Of a stretch of 64,000 bases of DNA, positions 11,472 through 45,747 are shown one piece after another (within the stretch, counting starts at the first letter, position 1; each line of letters begins with the position of its first letter). The notes below the pieces were generated by a model, which was not told where the DNA came from, made no database searches, and saw only the letters and a list, made by a program, of their open reading frames with translations. The position numbers and the translations under genes are program-made. The DNA is from Salegentibacter salinarum (GTDB lineage: Bacteria; Bacteroidota; Bacteroidia; Flavobacteriales; Flavobacteriaceae): contig NZ_FUZC01000008.1 of assembly GCF_900168115.1 (NCBI RefSeq), positions 124,001 to 188,000 of the forward strand, written 5' to 3'.

Positions 11472-11559
11472 ATTTGACGAAAAGCTAAGGGAGTAGTGAT
11501 ACTGCTTTAGCATTTTTCTTATACTTTTAAAAGTATAAAAGGGTTGCAATCAGTCAAAT
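11472..11559 (-). promoter_or_regulatory. Structured metK leader RNA, candidate riboswitch of unknown class
   Basis: On the minus-strand transcript, P1 is ATTTGAC (11559-11553) paired with GTCAAAT (11478-11472). Inside it lie a perfect 20-base palindrome at 11538-11519 (half-site TTATACTTTT) and a hairpin at 11511-11484. The hairpin has GCTAA/TTAGC and AGTA/TACT helices, two mismatches and a TCAC loop. Single-stranded words TGATTGCAACC and GCTAAAG lie at the junction. It lacks the S-box core seen upstream of metH. The words TGATT, GCAACC and GCTAAA recall parts of SAM-II RNAs, but the layout differs. Being directly upstream of metK suggests SAM or methionine sensing; this is inference. Confidence 0.45.
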
Positions 11560-11582
11560 CCTTCCCTTTAATAATTCGGTTA

Positions 11583-23580: not shown

Positions 23581-24087
23581 TTATAGGTGACAAACAAAAT
23601 TTATATTTACCTTTTTAATAAATTCAAAGTCATCAATCCATTCAACCTTCATATTTTCACAAACGTGTGGAATTTTTATTTTCGTTTGTTTTTTGATAAA
23701 ATCTTTCTGCTCTTTGGTGACGACAATTGCTTTTTCATTCATCGCGTGTGCTATAACCCAAGGATCTGCTTTGGAATGAATCTGATTGCTTGATACTAAA
23801 TACTTATGGTTTGGATTAGTAGCATATATTTCTTTTAAGCAATTAGCAACTGACCCGTCAATTTTTCTGATTGGAATATCACTTTTTTTTAACCATTCGA
23901 AAAGATCATCTTCACCTTTTTCAATTTCTTCAAAAACAACTTCTGGAATAAATATTATTCCTTTCTTTCCTAATTCGTTTAATACCTGCCAGTAAGAAGG
24001 ACAAATTTCGGGTGAGTAATATTTTTGCCAAGCTTGTATAAGAATGTTGGCATCTATGCAAAAAATGGTCCTTTCGTCCTCAAACAT
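23581..24087 (-). CDS. PIN-like DUF4411 protein, probable toxin
   Basis: The product has 168 residues. It begins FCIDANILIQAW, with the first conserved Asp of PIN-fold ribonucleases, and ends in KADPWVIAHAMNEKAIVVTKE, with the later acidic pair. This matches DUF4411, a PIN-like family usually encoded next to an XRE/ImmA protein. Cleavage of RNA is the expected activity; it is not proven for this family. Its ATG overlaps the stop of the upstream partner by one base (TAATG), showing translational coupling. Sequence and codon use look more AT-rich than the surrounding sulfur genes, in keeping with acquisition. Confidence 0.85.
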   Translation of the reverse strand: MFEDERTIFCIDANILIQAWQKYYSPEICPSYWQVLNELGKKGIIFIPEVVFEEIEKGEDDLFEWLKKSDIPIRKIDGSVANCLKEIYATNPNHKYLVSSNQIHSKADPWVIAHAMNEKAIVVTKEQKDFIKKQTKIKIPHVCENMKVEWIDDFEFIKKVNINFVCHL

Positions 24088-25259
24088 TAAGCTAGTAGTT
24101 TTTCAAACTTTTGGAATTTATTTATTTGTGTATTTAATAGATTGCTTGCAATTGATGGTGAAATAGTTCCATTTTTGAAAGAATCCATAACAATTCTGGT
24201 GAAAAGTTTACTGTTCTTATTTAATCTTAAAAGATATGTATCTGGCCCAGAATCTTTCTTTTTTTGCCTTAACTTTCTTTCTTCTTCTTTGGCTACAAAT
24301 TTCTCAAATTCTTCTTGAGCCTCATTCTTTAAAAATTGATAACTATTGTTTGAAATCAAATTTAGTTTAAGAAAACGAACCAATAATGCGAATGAGCTAA
24401 CACCAAGCTCTTTTGCTTGTTTAAAAACATTTTTATTTGAACTATATACTTCTTCCCCCATTTGAACTATAAGTTCTCTAGGCATTAAAGCGTTAGCAGC
24501 AACTTGATTACAAAATAATTCAACAGGATGAAATTTAGATTTAGGTTTTTCACTATAATCTATATCTATTTCATTTGATATTCCTGACTTAGCAATCCAA
24601 ATATGAGCTAATTCGTGTACTAGGGTGAATAATTGTGGAGCATCCCAGTTTTTTGTATTAATAAATATAAATGGAGCATATTTATCTGCAATTGCAAAAC
24701 CTTGGATTAGATCTCGATTTAAGACCAATTTCGAATGCAGATAACTAGTTCTTGAAATAAATATTCCGGCTGACTCCGCCTTATCAATCCACTCTGAAAT
24801 TGGTCTTTTTGAATAGTCGTTTGGATTTATTTTAAGTGTGTTTAAAATGTCTCTAGCAACTGTTTCTGGGTTATCATTGATAGAAAATTTACCTACGAAA
24901 TCTAGTTGGTCTTCACCAGTTTCTTCAAATAATTCACTAATCCAATTTTGTTTTTCTTGAATATCACGAATTATAAAAATTGATGCTGTATCCAGTTTTT
25001 TTGAATCGTCCCTTCGATAATCTTGTAATGGTTGAAAATCTTTTGGTATCTCTGGTAAGAAAAATAATGAGAATGGTCTTCGATATCCTTTGGCAAGTAA
25101 TTTTGCTTGTCTAATTGTTGGATAACCCGTTCCATTTTCCCAGGTTTCTAATCTTTCTGAAGAAACTTCAGCTTTCTTAGCACCATCTTCCAATGAGATA
25201 TTGGCGGACTCCCTAGCCCACTTTAAAATCTCAGAGGTAATAAATGCTTTATCTGCCAT
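24087..25259 (-). CDS. XRE-HTH + ImmA/IrrE metallopeptidase, probable antitoxin/regulator
   Basis: The protein has 390 residues. Residues about 10-60 form an XRE helix-turn-helix (ISLEDGAKKAEVSSERLETWENGTGYPTIRQAKLLAKGY). The middle holds a zinc-peptidase motif HELAH (LFTLVHELAHIWIA) of the ImmA/IrrE family. Such proteins pair with PIN or DUF4411 toxins and are thought to repress the operon and neutralise the toxin. It lies upstream of and overlaps the toxin gene. The pair interrupts a block of sulfur-metabolism genes and is bracketed by short direct repeats. Confidence 0.88.
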   Translation of the reverse strand: MADKAFITSEILKWARESANISLEDGAKKAEVSSERLETWENGTGYPTIRQAKLLAKGYRRPFSLFFLPEIPKDFQPLQDYRRDDSKKLDTASIFIIRDIQEKQNWISELFEETGEDQLDFVGKFSINDNPETVARDILNTLKINPNDYSKRPISEWIDKAESAGIFISRTSYLHSKLVLNRDLIQGFAIADKYAPFIFINTKNWDAPQLFTLVHELAHIWIAKSGISNEIDIDYSEKPKSKFHPVELFCNQVAANALMPRELIVQMGEEVYSSNKNVFKQAKELGVSSFALLVRFLKLNLISNNSYQFLKNEAQEEFEKFVAKEEERKLRQKKKDSGPDTYLLRLNKNSKLFTRIVMDSFKNGTISPSIASNLLNTQINKFQKFEKLLA

Positions 25260-26736: not shown

Positions 26737-26764
26737 CTGGTTCAAGTTCATTGTTTATAACATC

Positions 26765-26869
26765 GTTATCAAGAAAGGTTGAGGGAATAGACCCGTTGAA
26801 GCCTTGGCAACCCTCCTGTAATGGGAGAAGGTGCTACATTCTACTTCGCTTTTTGCGCAGATAGATAAC
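26765..26869 (+). promoter_or_regulatory. SAM-I (S-box) riboswitch
   Basis: P1 is GTTATC (26765-26770) with GATAAC (26864-26869). The conserved core follows in order: AAGAAAGG-TTGAGGGA kink-turn side, GACCC, GTTGAAGCCTTGGCAACC, the P3 hairpin CCTCCTGTAATGGGAG, GGTGCTAC, and a P4 hairpin. This is the standard SAM-I aptamer. The expression platform (26870-26905) has GAAAG-AATT-CTTTC and then a run of seven Ts, a weak terminator that P1 formation would favour. High SAM should therefore switch off metH-metF. Confidence 0.93.
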
Positions 26870-26923
26870 AAGAAAGAATTCTTTCCCGCTTCTTTTTTTG
26901 ATAGTGATTTTAGATAAAATTAT

Positions 26924-27940
26924 ATGTCGAAATTAGAAGAACAACTTCAAAAAAATATACTCATTTTAGACGGTGCCATGGGCACGATGCTTCAGGAATA
27001 TAAATTTTCTGAAGAAGACTTCCGTGGAAAACGTTTTGTAGATTGGCCGGTTTCCGTGCAGGGAAATAACGACCTCTTATCTATTACCCAGCCTGAAGCA
27101 ATCGCAACAATACACCGCAAATATTTTGAAGCCGGTGCAGATATTGTGGAAACCAACACCTTTTCTGCAACCACTATCGCAATGGCCGATTATAAAATGG
27201 AAGAACTCGTAGACGAACTCAATTATGAGTCGGCCAGGATTGCCAAAGAAGTTGCCGTAAAAATGACAGAAGAAAATCCTGAAAAACCTCGTTTTGTAGC
27301 CGGTGCTATTGGGCCTACCAATAAAACCGCCAGTATGAGCCCGGATGTGAACGATCCCGGTTTCAGGGCAATTTCTTTTGAAGAATTACGGGTAGCTTAT
27401 AAACAACAGGCCAAGGCTTTGATCAAGGGTGGAGTAGATATACTTTTGGTAGAAACCGTTTTTGATACTTTAAACGCTAAAGCCGCACTTTTTGCTTTGG
27501 AGGAACTTAAGGAAGAATTGCAGTTAGATATTCCCATAATGGTAAGCGGGACAATTACCGATGCTTCGGGCAGAACCTTATCGGGTCAAACTGCTGAAGC
27601 TTTTCTTATTTCAGTATCTCATATTCCATTGATTAGCGTTGGTTTTAACTGCGCGCTGGGCGCTAAACAACTAACACCGCACCTCGAGGTTTTAAACCGT
27701 TTTGCGAGTTGTGGGGTTTCGGCTTATCCCAACGCGGGCTTGCCAAATGCCTTTGGGGAATACGACCAGGATGCTGAAGAAATGGCAAGACAGATCAGGG
27801 AATATTTAGAAAAAGGACTGGTAAATATTCTCGGTGGTTGCTGCGGTACCACCCCGGAACATATTAAAGCTATTGCTGAAATTGCCAAAGATTATAATCC
27901 ACGAAAAATAGAGAAACCTGAATTTTCCACCGCTTTATGA
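26924..27940 (+). CDS. metH: Methionine synthase, homocysteine-binding subunit (MetH N-terminal domain)
   Basis: This 338-residue protein corresponds to the first domain of cobalamin-dependent MetH. It starts [15 protein letters not shown] and holds the zinc ligands in GFNCALG and [10 protein letters not shown] (C306, C307). It binds and activates homocysteine. In many Bacteroidota MetH is split after this domain. The stop overlaps the next ATG by four bases, so the two parts are made together and must assemble into one enzyme. Expression is controlled by the SAM-I riboswitch upstream. Confidence 0.94.
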
Positions 27941-30900
27941 TAGAAACAGTGAAAAAAGAAAATAAACAGGAAGAAATTTCTTCGGAAAAACAACAGCAAG
28001 AGGTGAGACCTTTAAAATTATCGGGCCTTGAACCTTTAATAATAACGCCCGACAGCAATTTTGTTAATGTTGGCGAAAGAACCAATGTGGCGGGTTCTAA
28101 AAAATTCCTGCGCTTAATTAAAGAAGAGAATTTTGAAGAAGCCCTGGAAGTAGCCAGGGACCAGGTAGACGGTGGGGCACAGATCATCGACATCAATATG
28201 GACGATGGTCTTATTGAAGGGAAAGAAGCGATGGTAAAATTCCTTAACCTTATTGTAGCCGAACCAGATATTGCCCGTGTGCCTATTATGATAGACAGTT
28301 CAAAATGGGAAATTATTGAAGCCGGTTTGCAGGTGGTACAGGGAAAATGCGTGGTGAATTCTATAAGCCTGAAAGAAGGTGAAGCAGAATTTATAGATCA
28401 CGCTAAGAAAATAAAACGCTACGGGGCGGCGGTAATTGTAATGGCTTTTGATGAAGTTGGGCAGGCCGATAATTATGACCGCCGAATTGAAATAGCAAAA
28501 CGTTCTTATGACATCCTTGTCAATAAAGTTAACTTCCCACCGGAGGACATCATATTTGACCTGAATATTTTTCCAGTTGGAACCGGGATGGACGAACATA
28601 AACGCAATGCCATAGATTTTATTGAAGCTACGCGTTGGGTAAGAGAAAACCTTCCACACTGTAGTATTAGTGGTGGGGTAAGTAATGTATCGTTTTCCTT
28701 CCGCGGAAATAACCCGGTCCGGGAAGCGATGCATTCGGTCTTTTTATATTATGCGATCAAGGCCGGAATGAATATCGGGATAGTAAATCCCGCGCTGCTT
28801 GAAGTTTATGACAATATCCCGAAAGATCTTTTAGAACACGTAGAAGACGTTATCCTGGACAGAAGGGAAGATGCCACCGAGCGACTTTTGGAATTTGCCG
28901 AAACCGTGGTAGGTTCAAAACGAGAAAGCAAGGTAGATCTCTCCTGGAGGGAAAAGCCCTTACAGGATAGGGTTACCCACGCACTTGTAAAAGGTATTGA
29001 TGCTTATATTTTAGAGGACATAGAACAAGCCCGCCAGGAAGCCGAGCAACCTATCGAGGTAATAGAGGGCCATTTGATGATTGGCATGAACGTGGTTGGA
29101 GATCTTTTTGGAAGCGGAAAAATGTTCCTGCCACAGGTAGTGAAATCGGCACGGGTGATGAAGAAAGCAGTAGCTTATCTTCTACCTTATATTGAAGCAG
29201 CAAAAAAAGCTCCTCAACCACCAAAAGGGGAGGATTATTGGAAAAAGGCAGAGCCTGAACTCTTTGCCTCCATGAAGGAATTTGCCGAAAAACAACGATA
29301 TAATAAGGAGACCAAAGCTGAAAATGTGCTATGGGAATCTTTAAAAGACAAACAACTCGAAGATTTTAAATTTAGAAAACAGCATATTATTGGAGACTAT
29401 ATAGCCGATTTTGTGTGTCTCAATAAGAAACTTATCATTGAGATAGAGGGATTGAGCCATCAATTGCCTGAAAATAAAAAAGGCAACGAAGAGAGAACAA
29501 CCTGGCTAAGAGATAACGAATTTAGGATTCTTAGGTTTACTAATGGAGATGTACTTACCAATTTTGATCACGTGCTGGATAAAATCTTACGTACGCTTAA
29601 AAAAGCTCCGGCATCGGGGTCAGGCGGGGCTGGAAAAGTCCTTATGGCCACTGTAAAAGGAGATGTGCATGATATTGGAAAAAATATTGTAGGCGTAGTC
29701 CTGAGTTGTAATAATTATGAAATTATAGACCTTGGGGTAATGGTGCCCCCGGAAAAAATAATAGAAACCGCTAAAGCTGAAGGTGTAGATGCCATTGGAC
29801 TAAGCGGTTTAATCACGCCTTCTTTAGACGAAATGGTATTTTTGGCAAAAGAAATGCAACGGCAAAATTTTGATGTGCCTTTGCTAATTGGTGGCGCTAC
29901 AACTTCAAAAGCGCACACTGCTGTAAAAATAGATCCACAGTACAAAAATGCGGTTGCCCACGTAAATGATGCTTCCCGTGCTGTTACTGTAATTGGAGAC
30001 CTTTTAAAGGAAAATACGCGTCAGAAATATATGAGTGATCTTAAAGCTGAGTACGATAAATTCAGGCTTAATTTTAAGAAAAGAAGTAAGGTGAAATCCT
30101 TTTTACCTATAGATGAAGCCCGGAAAAATAAGTATAAAATTGACTGGAAGAGCACTAATATCACGAAACCAAATAAACCGGGAATTCAGCAGATTGATGA
30201 TTTTGATTTAAGAGAACTTGAGCCTTTTATAGACTGGAGCCCGTTTTTTAGAAGCTGGGATTTACACGGAAGATATCCCGATATTTTAGAGGATAAAGTG
30301 GTTGGCGAACAGGCAACTTCATTATTTGAGGATGCCAAAGTTTTGCTGAAAAGAATCCTTGACGAGAAATTACTAAAAGCAAAAGCGGTTTACGGGTTGT
30401 TTCCTGCGAATACGGTTAATGATGATGATATTGAAGTTGCTTATGAAGAAGATTCAGAAGAAAAAACTATCCTTTTCAGAACGCTTCGGCAGCAATTAAA
30501 AAAACACGGAGGAAAACCAAACTTTGCACTTTCTGACTTTATTGCGCCAAAAGAAACCGGAATCCAGGATTATATAGGTTGTTTTTGCGTCACTACAGGA
30601 TTTGGTACCGCAGAACTCGCGAAAAAATTTGAGGAAGATTTCGACGATTATAATTCGATTATGATAAAAGCCCTGGCCGATAGGCTTGCGGAAGCTTTTG
30701 CCGAATATTTACATAAGAAAATAAGGCGGGAAGACTGGGGATATGCGCCTGAAGAGAATTTAAGCAACGAAGAATTAATAAAAGAAACCTATAAGGGAAT
30801 TCGGCCGGCACCGGGTTACCCCGCCTGTCCTGATCATTTAGAGAAACTAAGTATTTGGGAAGTTTTAAAGGTAAAAGAGCGAATTGGTGTAGAACTTACC

Positions 30901-31077
30901 GAAAGTTTGGCAATGTGGCCGGCTGCCAGTGTAAGCGGTTATTATTTTGCCAATCCCGAAGCACGTTATTTCGGCCTGGGAAAAATAAAAGACGACCAGG
31001 TGAGGGACTTTGCCGAGAGAAAAGGAATTCCGTTGAAAAAGGCCGAAAAATGGCTAAACCCGAATATCGTAGACTAA
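27937..31077 (+). CDS. metH: Methionine synthase, pterin/cobalamin/activation part, with inserted DUF559 domain
   Basis: The product has 1046 residues. Order: methyl-THF (pterin) binding at about 30-300 ([31 protein letters not shown]); the helical cap to about 422; a DUF559 endonuclease-like insertion at 423-554; the B12 Rossmann domain with DVHDIGKN (axial His578); and the AdoMet activation domain from about 730 ([15 protein letters not shown]). The insertion lies in the flexible linker between cap and B12 domain, leaving all core motifs intact. It is bounded by an 11-bp direct repeat, so the enzyme is probably still functional. The reaction is transfer of methyl from methyl-THF to homocysteine. 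metF follows 82 bases downstream. Confidence 0.93.
29203..29609 (+). mobile_element. In-frame DUF559 endonuclease-like insertion in metH with 11-bp direct repeats
   Basis: AAAAAAGCTCC occurs at 29203-29213 and again at 29599-29609, exactly 396 bases (132 codons) apart. The sequence between encodes a PPKGED border, a helical stretch ([19 protein letters not shown]) and a DUF559 domain: [41 protein letters not shown], then [20 protein letters not shown]559 is related to Vsr and very short patch-type PD-(D/E)xK nucleases. Candidate metal ligands are D491, E502, E504 and H508; the usual E-x-D appears here as E-x-E. The left border also holds a CTCC...GGAG inverted repeat. Deleting one repeat unit yields [19 protein letters not shown], an ordinary MetH linker. 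Confidence 0.85.
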
Positions 31078-41485: not shown

Positions 41486-43393
41486 ATGCGTAAGGTTTTT
41501 TTGCTCCTGTTTCTATTTTTTCAATTAGGTATTTCCTCAATTTATAGTCAGGATTATAGTATTTCTTCACTTCCTGCCAACTTACTATCCAATGCCAATG
41601 CCATTGTTCGTAATGAGTCTATAGAAATATCTATTCTTGCCGTTGACAAAATGAGGGTGAAAACAATGCGGGTCGTTACGGTTCTTAATGAATATGGAGA
41701 GCAACACGTTCAGGCTTACGATTTTTATGATGAGAATACCAAAATAAAACATCAGGAAGTCATTGTTTACAACAGTAGCGGAGAAAAAATAGATAAAATA
41801 AAAGAGCGAGATTTTTATGATCGTAGTCTTAATGGTTCAGGCACGCTCTTTAGTGATAACCGACTTAGTTATTTAAACTATACCATTAGTGATTATCCTT
41901 TAACCTTCGCCTATGAAAGTGAAGTAGAAACCAATTCTACAATTTTTATCCAGCCATGGAAGCCACTTGGAAATTATAATCTCAGTGTAGAAAAAACTTC
42001 TTATAAACTCCTAAACCTCAATGCGATTCCATTTAGGTTTGAGGAAAGGAATCTCGAAGAATTGGACCTTGAAAAGAATAATTCCACTTCAGAATTATTT
42101 TATAAAACCGGCAATATTTTAGCAGTTAAAAATGAAGTTTTAAGCCCCGATCTTTCAACTTTTACTCCCCAGGTCTTAGTGGCACTGAATGAGTTTGCCC
42201 TGGTAGGAGTGGAGGGTAAAGCTTCCAGTTGGAAAGAATTGGGAAAATGGCAGTATGATTATTTGTTAAACAATAAAACTGACCTTCCCGAGGAAACAAC
42301 TTTAAAGATTAAAGAACTTACCTCTAAGGCGATTTCTAACAGGGAAAAGGCAGAAATAATTTACAACTATGTTCAGGAAAATACCCGTTATATAAGTGTA
42401 CAATTAGGGATTGGAGGCTGGGAACCAATGGCAGCTGCAGATGTGGATAAATTGGGTTATGGAGATTGTAAAGCGCTTACTAATTACACCAAAGCCTTGC
42501 TGGAGTCCCAAAACATACCATCGTATTATACCGTGGTTTATGGTGGTAAAAAAAATAATATTGATCCCGATTTTGCTTCTATGCAGGGGAATCACGTAAT
42601 CCTTAATTTACCACTAGCAGAAGAAGATGTATGGTTAGAATGCACCAGCCAGTCTACTCCATTTAATTATTTGGGTGATTTTACCGACGATAGAAAAGTC
42701 TTAAAAATTTCTGCGGAAGGGGGAGAAATTATAAGCACGCCAAATTACTCTACAGCATCAAACCTCGAAGAGAGTTTATGCGAAATTCAACTAAACGAAG
42801 ATGGCGGATTTTTAGCGGAAGTTACACGTAGTAATTCCGGCATTGCTTATGGAGATACTTACGGGATTAGAAATCAGAAGTTAGATCACCAGAAAATTTA
42901 TTACCGGGAAAATTGGGGGCACTTAAAGGAATTGGAGATCGGGAAAATAGCTTTTGTGAATAACCGAGAGTCCGTAATTTTTACTGAGAACTTAGAGATT
43001 AAGGGAACTAAATTTGCTTCTAAGGCCGGAAACAGGTTATTGCTTCCCCTTAATTTTTTACCGGCTAAATCATTTAATTTACCAAGAAACGAGTCCAGGA
43101 AACTTCCTTTGGTCATAGACAGAGGAGAAACCTATAAAGATAATTTCCAATTTAAACTACCTGCAGGATTCAAAATAGAATCTATTCCGGAACCGGTGGT
43201 TATTGAAAATGATTTTGGTAAACTAAGTATAAAAACCAGTCTTACAGGTATTTCTAAAAACGAACTAAACGTTGAAAGACTGCTGATTTTAAATGAAGGG
43301 AGCTGGAATAGTTCAGAATATAATGCTTATCGTGAATTTATGAATCAAATAAAGTCTAATACCAATCAAAAGGCAGTTTTAGTCAGTAACTAA
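41486..43393 (+). CDS. Secreted DUF3857/transglutaminase-like protein, copy 1
   Basis: The product has 635 residues with a signal peptide (VFLLLFLFFQLGISSIYSQ). An N-terminal DUF3857 domain is followed by a transglutaminase-like core. GYGDCKALTNYTKALLE holds the catalytic Cys, and GNHVILNLPL holds the His. Function in Bacteroidota is unknown, with peptide cleavage or cross-linking in the periplasm as possibilities. It is followed eight bases later by a second protein with the same architecture. Confidence 0.85.
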   Translation: MRKVFLLLFLFFQLGISSIYSQDYSISSLPANLLSNANAIVRNESIEISILAVDKMRVKTMRVVTVLNEYGEQHVQAYDFYDENTKIKHQEVIVYNSSGEKIDKIKERDFYDRSLNGSGTLFSDNRLSYLNYTISDYPLTFAYESEVETNSTIFIQPWKPLGNYNLSVEKTSYKLLNLNAIPFRFEERNLEELDLEKNNSTSELFYKTGNILAVKNEVLSPDLSTFTPQVLVALNEFALVGVEGKASSWKELGKWQYDYLLNNKTDLPEETTLKIKELTSKAISNREKAEIIYNYVQENTRYISVQLGIGGWEPMAAADVDKLGYGDCKALTNYTKALLESQNIPSYYTVVYGGKKNNIDPDFASMQGNHVILNLPLAEEDVWLECTSQSTPFNYLGDFTDDRKVLKISAEGGEIISTPNYSTASNLEESLCEIQLNEDGGFLAEVTRSNSGIAYGDTYGIRNQKLDHQKIYYRENWGHLKELEIGKIAFVNNRESVIFTENLEIKGTKFASKAGNRLLLPLNFLPAKSFNLPRNESRKLPLVIDRGETYKDNFQFKLPAGFKIESIPEPVVIENDFGKLSIKTSLTGISKNELNVERLLILNEGSWNSSEYNAYREFMNQIKSNTNQKAVLVSN

Positions 43394-43400
43394 CATCATT

Positions 43401-45419
43401 ATGAAACAATTTTATTTTTTTATCATCAGTTTATTTTCCGTGTGTTTACTTCAGGCACAGGATTACAAATTTGGAAAGGTTTCTAAGGAAGAAGTACAGC
43501 AAAAAGAACATCCCACATTTGACGAAGCTAATGCGGCAATACTGTTTAGGAAGCATAGAGTTTATTATGAAATAAATAAAAATACGGGAATAAGTTTGGT
43601 AACCAATGTTCACGAGCGTATAAAAATCTATAATAAAGATGGTTTTGATTGGGCAAATAAAACCATAAGTGTATACCAGAATGGCTCTCAAAGGGAGAGT
43701 GTTAGCGATATAAAAGCCTATACCTATAATATTATTGATGGCAAACTGGTTGATGAAAAACTTAGAAAAAATGGTGTGTTCCAGGAAGAGGCCAGTAAAT
43801 ACAGCCTAAAAACCAAATTTACAATGCCTGCGGTAACTGCGGGTAGTGTAATAGAATATAAATATACCATTAAATCCCCATTTGTCACCTCTATAGACGA
43901 TGTGCCGCTTCAGTTTGAAATTCCGGTAGACAGGTTAGAGGCGGAAGTGAAAATCCCGGAATTTTTTGGATTTAAAATGCATTACAACCCAAGATCACCT
44001 ATTATTTTTCCCATTGATAAATCCCGCGAAAGCTTTAGATATAATTACACGCAGAAAAGAAGGAGCGGCGACCACGTGAGCAATACACAGTACAATCAGA
44101 AAAGCATAGATTATATCTTAAACGTCTATAACTTTCAAAAAGATGGTATTCCCCCTTTAAAAAAAGAAATTTATGTAGATTACCTTCAAAACTATGCAGC
44201 TTATTTGCGATGGGAATTACAGTATACCAAATTTCCTGATTCTCCAGTAGAAAGTTATTCCCGTACCTGGGAGCATGTGGCAAAAAGTATTTACGACGAT
44301 GCCGGCTTAAAACAAGAGGTAAACAAAACCAATTTTTTTGATGATGATATCGATGAATTACTGGCTGGAACGCAGGAGCAGCCTGCGAAACTTGAAAAAG
44401 TTTATAATTATGTAAAAAATAGAATAACCTGGAACGATTTTATAGGTTTTCAGGCAGAAAATGGGGGGAAATCGGCATATAAAGATGGAAAGGGTAATAC
44501 CGGTGATATAAACCTTATGCTGGTAAGCATGTTAAGATACGCGGGCTTTGATGCTAATCCTGTTTTGGTAAGTACTAAATCTCATGGAATACCATTTTAC
44601 CCAACCAGAAATGGTTTTAATTATGTGATAGCCGCTGTTGAAACTCAGGATAATATTGTTTTACTGGATGCTACCGATAAGAATGTGGCTATAGGAGAAC
44701 TTCCTGAAAGAGCTATGAATTGGAGAGGAAGGATAATTAGGGAAGATGGTTCTTCGGATTGGGTAGATTTAATGCCTAGCGTAAAGTCCCAAAACACTAC
44801 TATTCTCAATATGCAATTTGATGAAGAAATGGTATTGAAGGGTAAATCGCTAAGCAATATTAATGGTTTGCACGCCAAAAAATTTAGAGATAGTTATGTA
44901 GGTTTAGCGGAAAACGATTACCTGCAGGTTTTAGAAAAAGATAAGGGGAATATTCTTATTTCTGAGATAGATATATCTAACGAAAACGCCATTGGGCAAG
45001 ACATTAAGCAAAGCTATAATTTTGAACTTAGAGACGCGATGGAGGTAATAAATGAGAAAATTTATTTAAGACCCATGGTTTTTACCGCCCTTGATGAAAA
45101 TCCTTTTAAGGGTGAAGAGCGCAATTATCCAATAATATTTGACTTTCCATCCAGTGAAACTAAAGTGATAAACTTCCTTATCCCAGATGGTTATGAGGTT
45201 GAGTCGTTGCCGGAAAGCGCAATAGTTAAACTCAAGGACGGGGATGGGATCTTTAAGTTTATAGTGAATTTTGGTGGAAAATTTTTGAGAATTGAATCTT
45301 CTTTAGAATTAAATAATATAGTTTATACCTCTTTAGATTATGAGGGACTTAAAAATTTCTATGGACATATGGTGAATAAACATTCAGAAGCCATAGTTTT
45401 GTCAAAAGCTGAAAAATAA
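43401..45419 (+). CDS. Secreted DUF3857/transglutaminase-like protein, copy 2
   Basis: The 672-residue protein has a signal peptide (FYFFIISLFSVCLLQAQ), DUF3857 and a transglutaminase-like region. Where copy 1 has a catalytic Cys in GYGDCKAL, this copy reads GNTGDINLMLVSMLRYAGF, so the Cys is replaced by Ile and the protein is probably not an active peptidase. The His region is FNYVIAAVE. The pair may act as active enzyme and inactive partner. mazG begins one base after the stop. Confidence 0.82.
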   Translation: MKQFYFFIISLFSVCLLQAQDYKFGKVSKEEVQQKEHPTFDEANAAILFRKHRVYYEINKNTGISLVTNVHERIKIYNKDGFDWANKTISVYQNGSQRESVSDIKAYTYNIIDGKLVDEKLRKNGVFQEEASKYSLKTKFTMPAVTAGSVIEYKYTIKSPFVTSIDDVPLQFEIPVDRLEAEVKIPEFFGFKMHYNPRSPIIFPIDKSRESFRYNYTQKRRSGDHVSNTQYNQKSIDYILNVYNFQKDGIPPLKKEIYVDYLQNYAAYLRWELQYTKFPDSPVESYSRTWEHVAKSIYDDAGLKQEVNKTNFFDDDIDELLAGTQEQPAKLEKVYNYVKNRITWNDFIGFQAENGGKSAYKDGKGNTGDINLMLVSMLRYAGFDANPVLVSTKSHGIPFYPTRNGFNYVIAAVETQDNIVLLDATDKNVAIGELPERAMNWRGRIIREDGSSDWVDLMPSVKSQNTTILNMQFDEEMVLKGKSLSNINGLHAKKFRDSYVGLAENDYLQVLEKDKGNILISEIDISNENAIGQDIKQSYNFELRDAMEVINEKIYLRPMVFTALDENPFKGEERNYPIIFDFPSSETKVINFLIPDGYEVESLPESAIVKLKDGDGIFKFIVNFGGKFLRIESSLELNNIVYTSLDYEGLKNFYGHMVNKHSEAIVLSKAEK

Positions 45420-45420
45420 A

Positions 45421-45747
45421 ATGAACATAGAAAACGCTCAAAAGGCAGTAGACGATTGGATAAAAGAACACGGAGTTCGGTATTTTAATGAACTTACCAA
45501 TATGGCGCAACTTACCGAGGAAGTAGGCGAAGTTGCCCGTATAATCGCCCGAAGATACGGGGAGCAAAGTGAAAAAGAATCTGATAAGGAAAAGGATCTG
45601 GGTGAGGAGCTGGCAGATGTAATGTTTGTGGTGCTCTGCCTGGCCAATCAAACCGGGGTTGATCTTCAGGAAGCTTTTGATAAAAAATTGGATATAAAAA
45701 CAAAAAGAGATCACGACAGGCATCATAATAACGAAAAGTTAAAATAA
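45421..45747 (+). CDS. MazG-type nucleotide pyrophosphohydrolase
   Basis: The protein has 108 residues with the MazG metal motif TEEVGEVARI (ExxE) and GEELADVMFVVLCLA (the second ExxD). Such short MazG proteins hydrolyse NTPs or dNTPs to monophosphates and pyrophosphate in the cytoplasm. The gene is coupled to the next by a one-base overlap (TAATG). Confidence 0.93.
   Translation: MNIENAQKAVDDWIKEHGVRYFNELTNMAQLTEEVGEVARIIARRYGEQSEKESDKEKDLGEELADVMFVVLCLANQTGVDLQEAFDKKLDIKTKRDHDRHHNNEKLK

What the first reader, a model, noticed from the sequence alone, without database searches (positions are those of the whole stretch)
29203..29609. DUF559 nuclease-like domain inserted in frame in methionine synthase, with 11-bp direct repeats
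Seen directly: AAAAAAGCTCC at both ends exactly 396 bases apart. The insert encodes a complete DUF559 domain in the same frame, and removing one unit restores a normal linker between the MetH cap and B12 domains. This looks like a protein-level mobile module, comparable to an intein or homing insertion but without self-splicing motifs. It is placed where the host enzyme tolerates it. The DUF559 nuclease fold (PD-(D/E)xK) suggests the domain may drive its own spread or repair-mediated insertion.
Basis: partly seen in the sequence, partly recalled or inferred. Interest (0 to 1): 0.88.

Follow-up and report, generated by a model that had tools for sequence, protein, structure and literature searches.

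The report
Nuclease element hidden inside methionine synthase
A small piece of DNA that encodes a DNA-cutting enzyme sits in frame inside the gene of a bacterial housekeeping enzyme; relatives of it sit at fixed places in other housekeeping proteins of related bacteria, and they appear to spread like a selfish element that is not spliced out.

Summary
The insert is real. It is not the 396-bp unit between 11-bp direct repeats (such repeats are ordinary here) but a 141-codon module, 29209-29631, in the MetH cap/B12 linker of a Salegentibacter-genus genome. Sister copies carry ~26-bp G+C-rich terminal inverted repeats (TIRs), each with an inner palindrome; two modules in one MetH of G251 (345 of 418 bases alike) match exactly from one outer edge to the other. 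The window's TIRs are decayed (21/26, 20/27). The module is a DUF559 nuclease, predicted fold nearest NGO0050 and homing endonuclease I-Bth0305I. Occupancy of the MetH site is patchy (14 changes on 80 hosts); closely related Lutibacter hosts carry different modules; TIR-TIR remnants exist. Related modules sit in frame inside or at an end of LeuRS, IleRS, RecG, HemD, HisD, acetate-CoA ligase, HsdR and PurQ-like proteins; module lineages follow the host site (8 changes, minimum 7). LeuRS with the module is the only LeuRS found in 17 of 17 genomes, so essential hosts tolerate it. Best reading: a palindrome-ended, in-frame, non-splicing, homing-like element. Cleavage and homing are inferred, not shown.

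The parts
26763..26871 (+). SAM riboswitch (S box leader) upstream of the split metH genes
   Evidence: Rfam RF00162, 87.6 bits
26924..27940 (+). metH 5' gene: homocysteine S-methyltransferase domain as a separate ORF, overlapping the next start by 4 bp
27937..31077 (+). metH 3' gene (pterin-binding, cap, B12, activation domains) carrying the module in frame, 1046 aa
28963..29181 (+). B12-binding_2 (cap) domain, host, left of the insertion
   Evidence: PF02607 residues 343-415
29208..29233 (+). left terminal inverted repeat with inner palindrome, decayed (21 of 26 to the form seen in sister copies)
29209..29631 (+). the in-frame module, 141 codons, TIR to TIR
   Evidence: boundaries from filled/empty alignment and the G251 twin modules
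29234..29274 (+). N-terminal extension (YW..A.P..) of the kind shared by many in-protein modules and not seen in the free-standing DUF559 proteins examined
   Evidence: pattern chosen after looking
29275..29598 (+). DUF559 nuclease domain (E38, D67, E78, H84 of the module kept; position 80, D in most copies, is E here)
   Evidence: PF04480 E 2.4e-29, alignment A1, fold search
29605..29631 (+). right terminal inverted repeat with inner palindrome, decayed (20 of 27)
29632..29913 (+). B12-binding domain, host, right of the insertion
   Evidence: PF02310 residues 566-659

Best explanation
The insert is an in-frame, palindrome-ended mobile element that encodes a Vsr / I-Bth0305I-like (DUF559) nuclease and is translated as an extra domain of methionine synthase. 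G+C-rich terminal inverted repeats (in the MetH form without a stop codon in any frame) and a compact nuclease fold let the element sit in a loop between two host domains without being spliced. Each host site (MetH linker, LeuRS editing region, RecG, IleRS and so on) has largely its own nuclease lineage, which most likely spreads by homing: the nuclease cuts the empty allele in a cell that also holds the filled one and the break is repaired from the filled allele. Rarely the element jumps to a new site (MetH site 1 to site 2 in G251). Copies decay through loss of the nuclease to TIR-TIR remnants and then to an empty site. Shown by computation: anatomy, in-frame coding, purifying selection within the genus, patchy occupancy of one site, different modules in closely related hosts, TIR-TIR forms, other hosts, lineages by host site, sole-copy essential hosts. 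Inferred: cleavage of the empty allele, homing by gene conversion, absence of splicing at the bench level, and the direction of decay. The window's own copy, with decayed ends and position 80 changed to E, may be ageing or immobile.
For: Filled and empty alleles at one MetH site within the genus. 14 gain/loss changes on a tree of 80 hosts, 26 filled, at least 9 forced by starred branches. Lutibacter L097/L107 against L102: host pS 0.38-0.41 and pN 0.03, module pS 0.66-0.76 and pN 0.28, so a different module at the same site. L099: host data reject grouping with L100/L106 (p 1.5e-10), module data reject grouping with L094/L095 (p 0.009). Aequorivita L091/L093: module pS 0.30 below host pS 0.57. 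Twin modules in one MetH of G251, similar exactly from AGCCCCCC to GGGGGGCT, 345 of 418 bases and 120 of 139 residues alike. TIR-TIR forms without nuclease at the same site: L132, L150, L159. 117 module domains labelled by host site need 8 changes, minimum 7, shuffles mean 62.7. Fold match to NGO0050 (E 1.1e-7) and I-Bth0305I (E 5.7e-4). Module core dN/dS median 0.13 within the genus. LeuRS with the module is the only LeuRS found in 17 of 17 genomes, likewise IleRS in the 3 genomes with a filled IleRS that were searched; 7 of 12 genomes with a filled MetH show no MetE.
Against: No cleavage data. Module identity exceeds host identity in only 9 of 325 pairs, and module and host identities correlate (Spearman 0.34), so much inheritance looks vertical. 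Flanking co-conversion is only suggestive: MetH of the window and of G002 is 81-88% identical in the host bins nearest the module and mostly 90-97% further away, but dips again at 82-87% elsewhere, grouped pairs show only weak effects, and against G012 and G013 other stretches are lower than the module. Known homing endonuclease genes do not usually carry TIRs (recalled). Five close Lutibacter modules as one clade are rejected in one test (p 0.0077) and not in another (p 0.066). The module of L099 is not a recent transfer by synonymous sites (module pS 0.67-0.68 against 0.55-0.58 for the host). RecG modules show no TIR signal in the automated test (0 of 8). Several forks that separate the host sites have modest support (RecG 81, LeuRS 82). 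The window genome has a MetE, so its MetH need not be essential.
Confidence: 0.6

Rival explanations
1. REP/RAYT-like or MITE-like transposition: the DUF559 protein mobilises the palindromic repeats that are scattered in these genomes, and the in-protein copies are the insertions that happened to be in frame and tolerated.
For: The same palindrome occurs dispersed in 13 of 16 genomes, none for the reversed control pattern; in 20 places that I chose to fetch, 18 of 27 repeats lie outside ORFs of 100 codons or more and four places hold inverted pairs of 66-187 bp. Free-standing DUF559 genes sit between inverted repeats: 26 of 42 rank in the top 5% of local controls with 250-bp flanks, 11 of 42 with 90 bp. 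One ectopic jump MetH1 to MetH2.
Against: Module lineages are faithful to one site in one conserved gene across genera, which random transposition does not predict; no target duplication seen in the twin comparison; in the window's module the Pfam scan found DUF559 and nothing else.
Confidence: 0.22
2. One ancient acquisition per host gene, then vertical inheritance with many losses; the domain may now serve the host (domesticated nuclease or a nucleic-acid-binding module).
For: Modules cluster by host site and largely by genus; purifying selection; sole-copy essential hosts carry it.
Against: Closely related hosts with different modules, conflict of L099, module synonymous divergence below host divergence in some pairs, TIR structure and TIR-TIR forms, sister species with and without the module.
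Confidence: 0.15
3. Splicing element of an unknown type: the insert is removed from mRNA or protein.
For: TIRs could pair in RNA (not tested); essential hosts stay functional (inferred).
Against: No intein domain in Pfam or NCBIfam scans, no intron family at the site, codon-level purifying selection across the module core in the host frame.
Confidence: 0.02
4. Misassembly or chance fusion in one genome.
For: None found.
Against: Nine filled genomes in the genus, two of them single-contig, and 26 of 80 named loci.
Confidence: 0.01

Closest known systems
EDxHD / Vsr-like homing endonuclease I-Bth0305I (PDB 3R3P)
   Same: Predicted fold of the module matches its catalytic domain (Foldseek E 5.7e-4, 22% identity); small nuclease at a fixed site in a conserved gene
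   Different: I-Bth0305I belongs to a phage group I intron (recalled); here the nuclease is translated in frame inside the host protein, with TIRs and no detected splicing element
ShiLan domain of phage methylases (PMC11855218; abstract and Discussion section read)
   Same: Insertion without detected splicing, open in frame with the host, homing-like distribution, hides a homing-type endonuclease
   Different: There the HNH nuclease is in another frame and a phage gene is hit; here the nuclease is in the host frame, the element has TIRs and sits in bacterial housekeeping genes
Rickettsia palindromic elements (passages in the review PMC10969869; the original papers recalled)
   Same: Palindromic DNA inserted in frame in unrelated protein genes, each element with a coding frame
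   Different: RPEs are ~150 bp and, as recalled, carry no nuclease; the elements here are ~420 bp, carry a nuclease and reuse fixed sites
REP/RAYT and MITE families
   Same: Palindromic or inverted repeats around a nuclease gene, solo repeats scattered in the genome
   Different: RAYT is a Y1 HUH transposase (recalled); DUF559 is another fold; insertion here is in frame inside genes
DUF559 proteins such as Caulobacter VsrA (PMC12907096, passages seen)
   Same: Same Pfam domain; VsrA is needed for a DNA damage response in cells lacking a methyltransferase, so the family can act on DNA
   Different: Free-standing, suggested very-short-patch repair role

Membership tests
DUF559 (PF04480) | profile match over the curated cut-off | tested here: met
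   101.8 bits against 20.6
DUF559 / Vsr-like nuclease | fold and conserved acidic and histidine residues | tested here: met
   fold search (model mean pLDDT 75); E38, D67, H84 invariant and E78, D80 nearly so in 22 modules; the window has E at position 80. That these are the catalytic residues is recalled. Activity not tested
Homing endonuclease element | same site in a conserved gene, patchy between close relatives | tested here: met
Homing endonuclease element | element history differs from host history | tested here: met
   L099 and L097/L107; much of the rest is congruent
Homing endonuclease element | co-conversion of flanks | tested here: inconclusive
Homing endonuclease element | cleavage of the empty but not the filled allele | not testable with these tools
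   needs biochemistry
Intein | Hint / splicing domain | tested here: not met
   only DUF559 found between the host domains
Group I / II intron | intron RNA fold | tested here: not met
   Rfam scan of the window at gathering scores: two riboswitches only
MITE / Rickettsia palindromic element-like | terminal inverted repeats with palindromes | tested here: met
   MetH set 24 of 37 in the top 5% of local controls with 90-bp flanks, 21 of 37 with 250 bp; the window copy alone fails
MITE | target site duplication | tested here: inconclusive
   none seen outside the TIRs in the G251 twins
MITE / Rickettsia palindromic element | non-autonomous, no enzyme of its own | tested here: not met
   full copies carry a DUF559 domain; the forms in L132, L150 and L159 lack it
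REP/RAYT | Y1 transposase | tested here: not met
   only DUF559 found in the window's module by the Pfam scan

The most novel reading that the evidence does not exclude
A class of selfish element that lives permanently inside host proteins across the window's bacterial class: palindrome-ended, always in frame, encoding a site-specific nuclease made only as a domain of housekeeping enzymes (LeuRS, IleRS, MetH, RecG, acetate-CoA ligase and others), spreading by homing without any splicing, each lineage loyal to one protein site, with solo palindromes as its dead or non-autonomous relatives.
Probability: 0.5. Interest if true: 0.93.

Novelty: new variant of a known kind. Interest (0 to 1): 0.86.

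Why it matters
Homing elements in protein genes are generally thought to need self-splicing (intron or intein) to be tolerated. Here the cost seems to be avoided by structure: in-frame ends and a loop position, so that essential enzymes such as LeuRS carry the nuclease as an extra domain. That would be a testable further solution to the problem of living inside a gene, a source of domain insertions in protein evolution, and a possible role for palindromic repeats of Bacteroidota and for DUF559, which the Pfam copy used here still describes as of unknown function. It is also a warning for annotation: these proteins read as odd fusions.

Tried and rejected
Direct repeats as target duplication: rejected. 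Pairwise TIR test on the window copy alone: no signal, because its ends are decayed. RecG modules: no TIR signal by the automated test (0 of 8), although palindromes are visible at their ends by eye; left open. Co-conversion: suggestive only. Palindrome pattern with up to 3 mismatches in the window's own genome: 0 matches. Full-length MetH model: pTM 0.41, not used. Phage and plasmid vectors: 3 and 38 records, all under 60% identity, so no near vector in those two collections. Paper searches: DUF559 (14 papers listed, none about this by title or start of abstract; passages of one, PMC12907096, read) and combined searches: no description of in-frame DUF559 insertions in MetH or LeuRS among the papers listed; the library lacks most subscription papers.

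Caveats on counts. The 80 named loci are the best 80 of 300 and were found with a query that contains the module, one of the six peptide patterns lying in it, so filled alleles are over-represented. The N-terminal motif was chosen after looking at the sequences; so were the clades for the AU tests. In one search domains weaker than E 1e-8, spanning under 80 residues or identical to one already taken were dropped before the count, and loci L163-L168 were left out; named and unnamed loci overlap, so many were dropped as identical. Host labels there come from short sequence motifs; one domain labelled free (L196) falls among the HemD modules, one LeuRS domain (L066) falls outside the LeuRS clade, and the support of several forks is modest. 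The listings are cut, so 73 of 150 refers to the listed matches only; those 150 ORF lengths were copied by hand into. Many loci are cut at 1.5 kb on each side of the domain.

Full report
Observation. The window belongs to a genome of the genus of the named Salegentibacter loci (genus inferred from the near-identity of MetH, 90-94% to most of them). The ORF 27937-31077 is the larger part of a split MetH; the homocysteine-binding part is 26924-27940, behind an S-box SAM riboswitch. A DUF559 domain lies between the cap and B12 domains. The two 11-bp direct repeats exist but are unremarkable: of 126 overlapping 1-kb stretches of the window 53 hold such a pair.

True boundaries. Filled MetH alleles elsewhere begin with AGCCCCCCAACCCCCAAAGGGGGAGC-like and end with GCTCCCCCTTTGGGGGCGGGGGGGGCT-like sequence, inverted repeats of each other, each with an inner palindrome. 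In G251 one MetH ORF of 1159 aa has two modules, one in the usual linker and one further downstream after [10 protein letters not shown]; their DNA similarity (345 of 418 bases; 120 of 139 residues; 41 codons differ synonymously, 19 not) starts and stops exactly at these ends. In the window the ends are decayed, 21 of 26 and 20 of 27 positions. The two consensus ends hold no stop codon in any of six frames, and the window's two ends are 58% and 78% G+C in a 38.5% window; ends of modules in other hosts differ and some contain TAA in one frame (by eye).

Statistics of the ends. Rank in the top 5% of local controls for inverted repeats, with flanks of 90 / 250 bp: MetH 24 / 21 of 37, LeuRS 8 / 6 of 17, IleRS 2 / 1 of 3, HemD 3 / 3 of 9, RecG 0 / 0 of 8, free-standing DUF559 genes 11 / 26 of 42. 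An earlier test with other controls gave 10 of 40 in-frame modules, 2 of 9 HemD and 2 of 11 free genes above all controls, and failed for the window copy. The palindrome, with up to 3 mismatches, is dispersed in 13 of 16 genomes, with no match for the reversed control; the window's own genome has none. In 20 places that I chose to fetch, 18 of 27 repeats lay outside ORFs of 100 codons or more, and L169, L178, L184 and L187 hold inverted pairs of 66-187 bp.

Mobility at one site. Of 15 genus genomes (own included), 14 gave a MetH match: 9 filled, 5 empty. Of 80 named loci 26 are filled, in Salegentibacter, Christiangramia, Salinimicrobium, Gillisia, Aquimarina, Maribacter, Aequorivita, Croceitalea, Polaribacter, Lutibacter and one unnamed Flavobacteria bacterium. 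The host tree needs 14 changes, shuffles about 22. S. holothuriorum (filled) and S. maritimus (empty) are sisters there. Aequorivita L132, L150 and L159 have both TIRs but no nuclease: remnants, or palindrome pairs that never held one.

Different histories. Module and host identity correlate weakly (Spearman 0.34) and the module is more alike than the host in 9 of 325 pairs, so vertical descent is common. Exceptions: L097/L107 against L102 (host pS 0.38-0.41, module pS 0.66-0.76; pN 0.03 against 0.28); L099, whose host groups with Polaribacter and whose module groups with L100/L106 (AU p 1.5e-10 and 0.009). Holding five close Lutibacter modules together is rejected in one test (35 rows, p 0.0077) and not in another (26 rows, p 0.066). 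Of 18 pairs examined, module pS is below host pS in some (L091/L093 0.30 against 0.57; L082/L083 0.38 against 0.57; L096/L102 0.22 against 0.34; L098/L104 0.57 against 0.72; also L098/L102 and L090/L092) and above it in the other 12, among them L099/L100 (0.68 against 0.55) and L082/L103 (0.86 against 0.70). MetH of the window and of G002 is mostly 90-97% identical but 81-88% in the host bins next to the module, and 82-87% again further downstream; the two module bins are the lowest of the comparison with G002, but not with G012 or G013. The region is mosaic, so this is only suggestive.

Selection. In 9 genus alleles the host median dN/dS is 0.036 and the module core 0.129, over the pairs where dS could be computed: the domain is kept as protein. 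At the motif, L003/L105 have E78 to A, and the window and L084 have E at position 80.

Other hosts. In 299 genomes drawn from the family, 143 have DUF559 matches, many in long ORFs; in 295 drawn from the class, 120 do, and 73 of 150 listed matches lie in ORFs of at least 300 aa. Hosts confirmed by family scans of sample members: MetH third site (L230, L231, L233, L234), LeuRS second site (L229, L239) and first site (L245, L248; 17 genomes), IleRS (L078), RecG (L064, L065), HisD with the module at its C-terminus (L045), acetate-CoA ligase (L249, L257), HsdR (L232), a PurQ-like protein below the family cut-off (L240). HemD with the module at its N-terminus is supported for L069 (E 3.2e-16, below the cut-off) and not confirmed for L072 at E 1e-15; the HemD name for the other seven ORFs, and the host names of further members, rest on motifs. 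Of 117 distinct domains, labels by host site need 8 changes where 7 is the minimum. Many internal modules share an N-terminal Y.T....-type extension (MetH site 1 27 of 36, site 2 1 of 1, LeuRS 13 of 17, RecG 8 of 8, IleRS 3 of 3, HisD 1 of 1, HemD 1 of 9, long ORFs of the class sample 9 of 20; free-standing 0 of 42 and 0 of 10). In an alignment of 21 MetH proteins, the 25 residues left and right of the site are at the 95th and 84th percentile of conservation.

Hosts must tolerate it. LeuRS with a module is the only LeuRS at E 1e-60 in 17 of 17 genomes chosen for carrying it; IleRS likewise in 3 of 3 (the second enzyme matched there is below the family cut-off). MetE is absent from 7 of 12 genomes with filled MetH and present in 5, the window's among them.

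Nuclease. The module model (mean pLDDT 75, pTM 0.71) matches NGO0050 (3HRL, E 1.1e-7) and the homing endonuclease I-Bth0305I (3R3P, E 5.7e-4). A Caulobacter DUF559 protein is needed for a DNA damage response in vivo (PMC12907096, passages).

Conclusion. A palindrome-ended, in-frame element with a homing-endonuclease-like domain, with no sign of splicing, is well supported by these computations; homing as the means of spread is the best inference (0.6). The nearest published ideas seen are the ShiLan insertion (PMC11855218), where the nuclease is out of frame, and Rickettsia palindromic elements (PMC10969869). I found no report of this DUF559 form in the searches listed under Tried and rejected.

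Noticed in passing
window 23581-25259: DUF4411 gene beside an HTH plus IrrE/M78 peptidase gene, without a match in the fetched regions of three genus relatives: a strain-variable pair that looks like a toxin-antitoxin system (inference); the HTH-peptidase protein has PADLOC matches to RmrA and capP.
   Followed up: partly
window 11497-11573, minus strand: SAM-II riboswitch in the same window as the S-box riboswitch of metH.
   Followed up: no
window 26924-27940 and 27937-31077: MetH split into two overlapping genes with the homocysteine domain separate.
   Followed up: partly
L062 (G251), MetH ORF: Two DUF559 modules in one MetH protein, 345 of 418 bases alike; 41 codons differ synonymously and 19 not.
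   Followed up: yes
L245 (G417) LeuRS: The module is preceded by tandem copies of a palindrome-derived repeat in frame (SPQERGEGFVAGFSPQERGEG), so the ends themselves seem to multiply inside the protein.
   Followed up: no
L232 (G340): A DUF559 module inside the HsdR subunit of a type I restriction enzyme.
   Followed up: no
window 41501-45500: Stretch without a match in the fetched G002 and G013 regions but 76-81% identical in G012: a variable island.
   Followed up: no
L169, L178, L184, L187: MITE-like inverted pairs of the same palindrome, 66-187 bp, too short for a DUF559 gene.
   Followed up: partly
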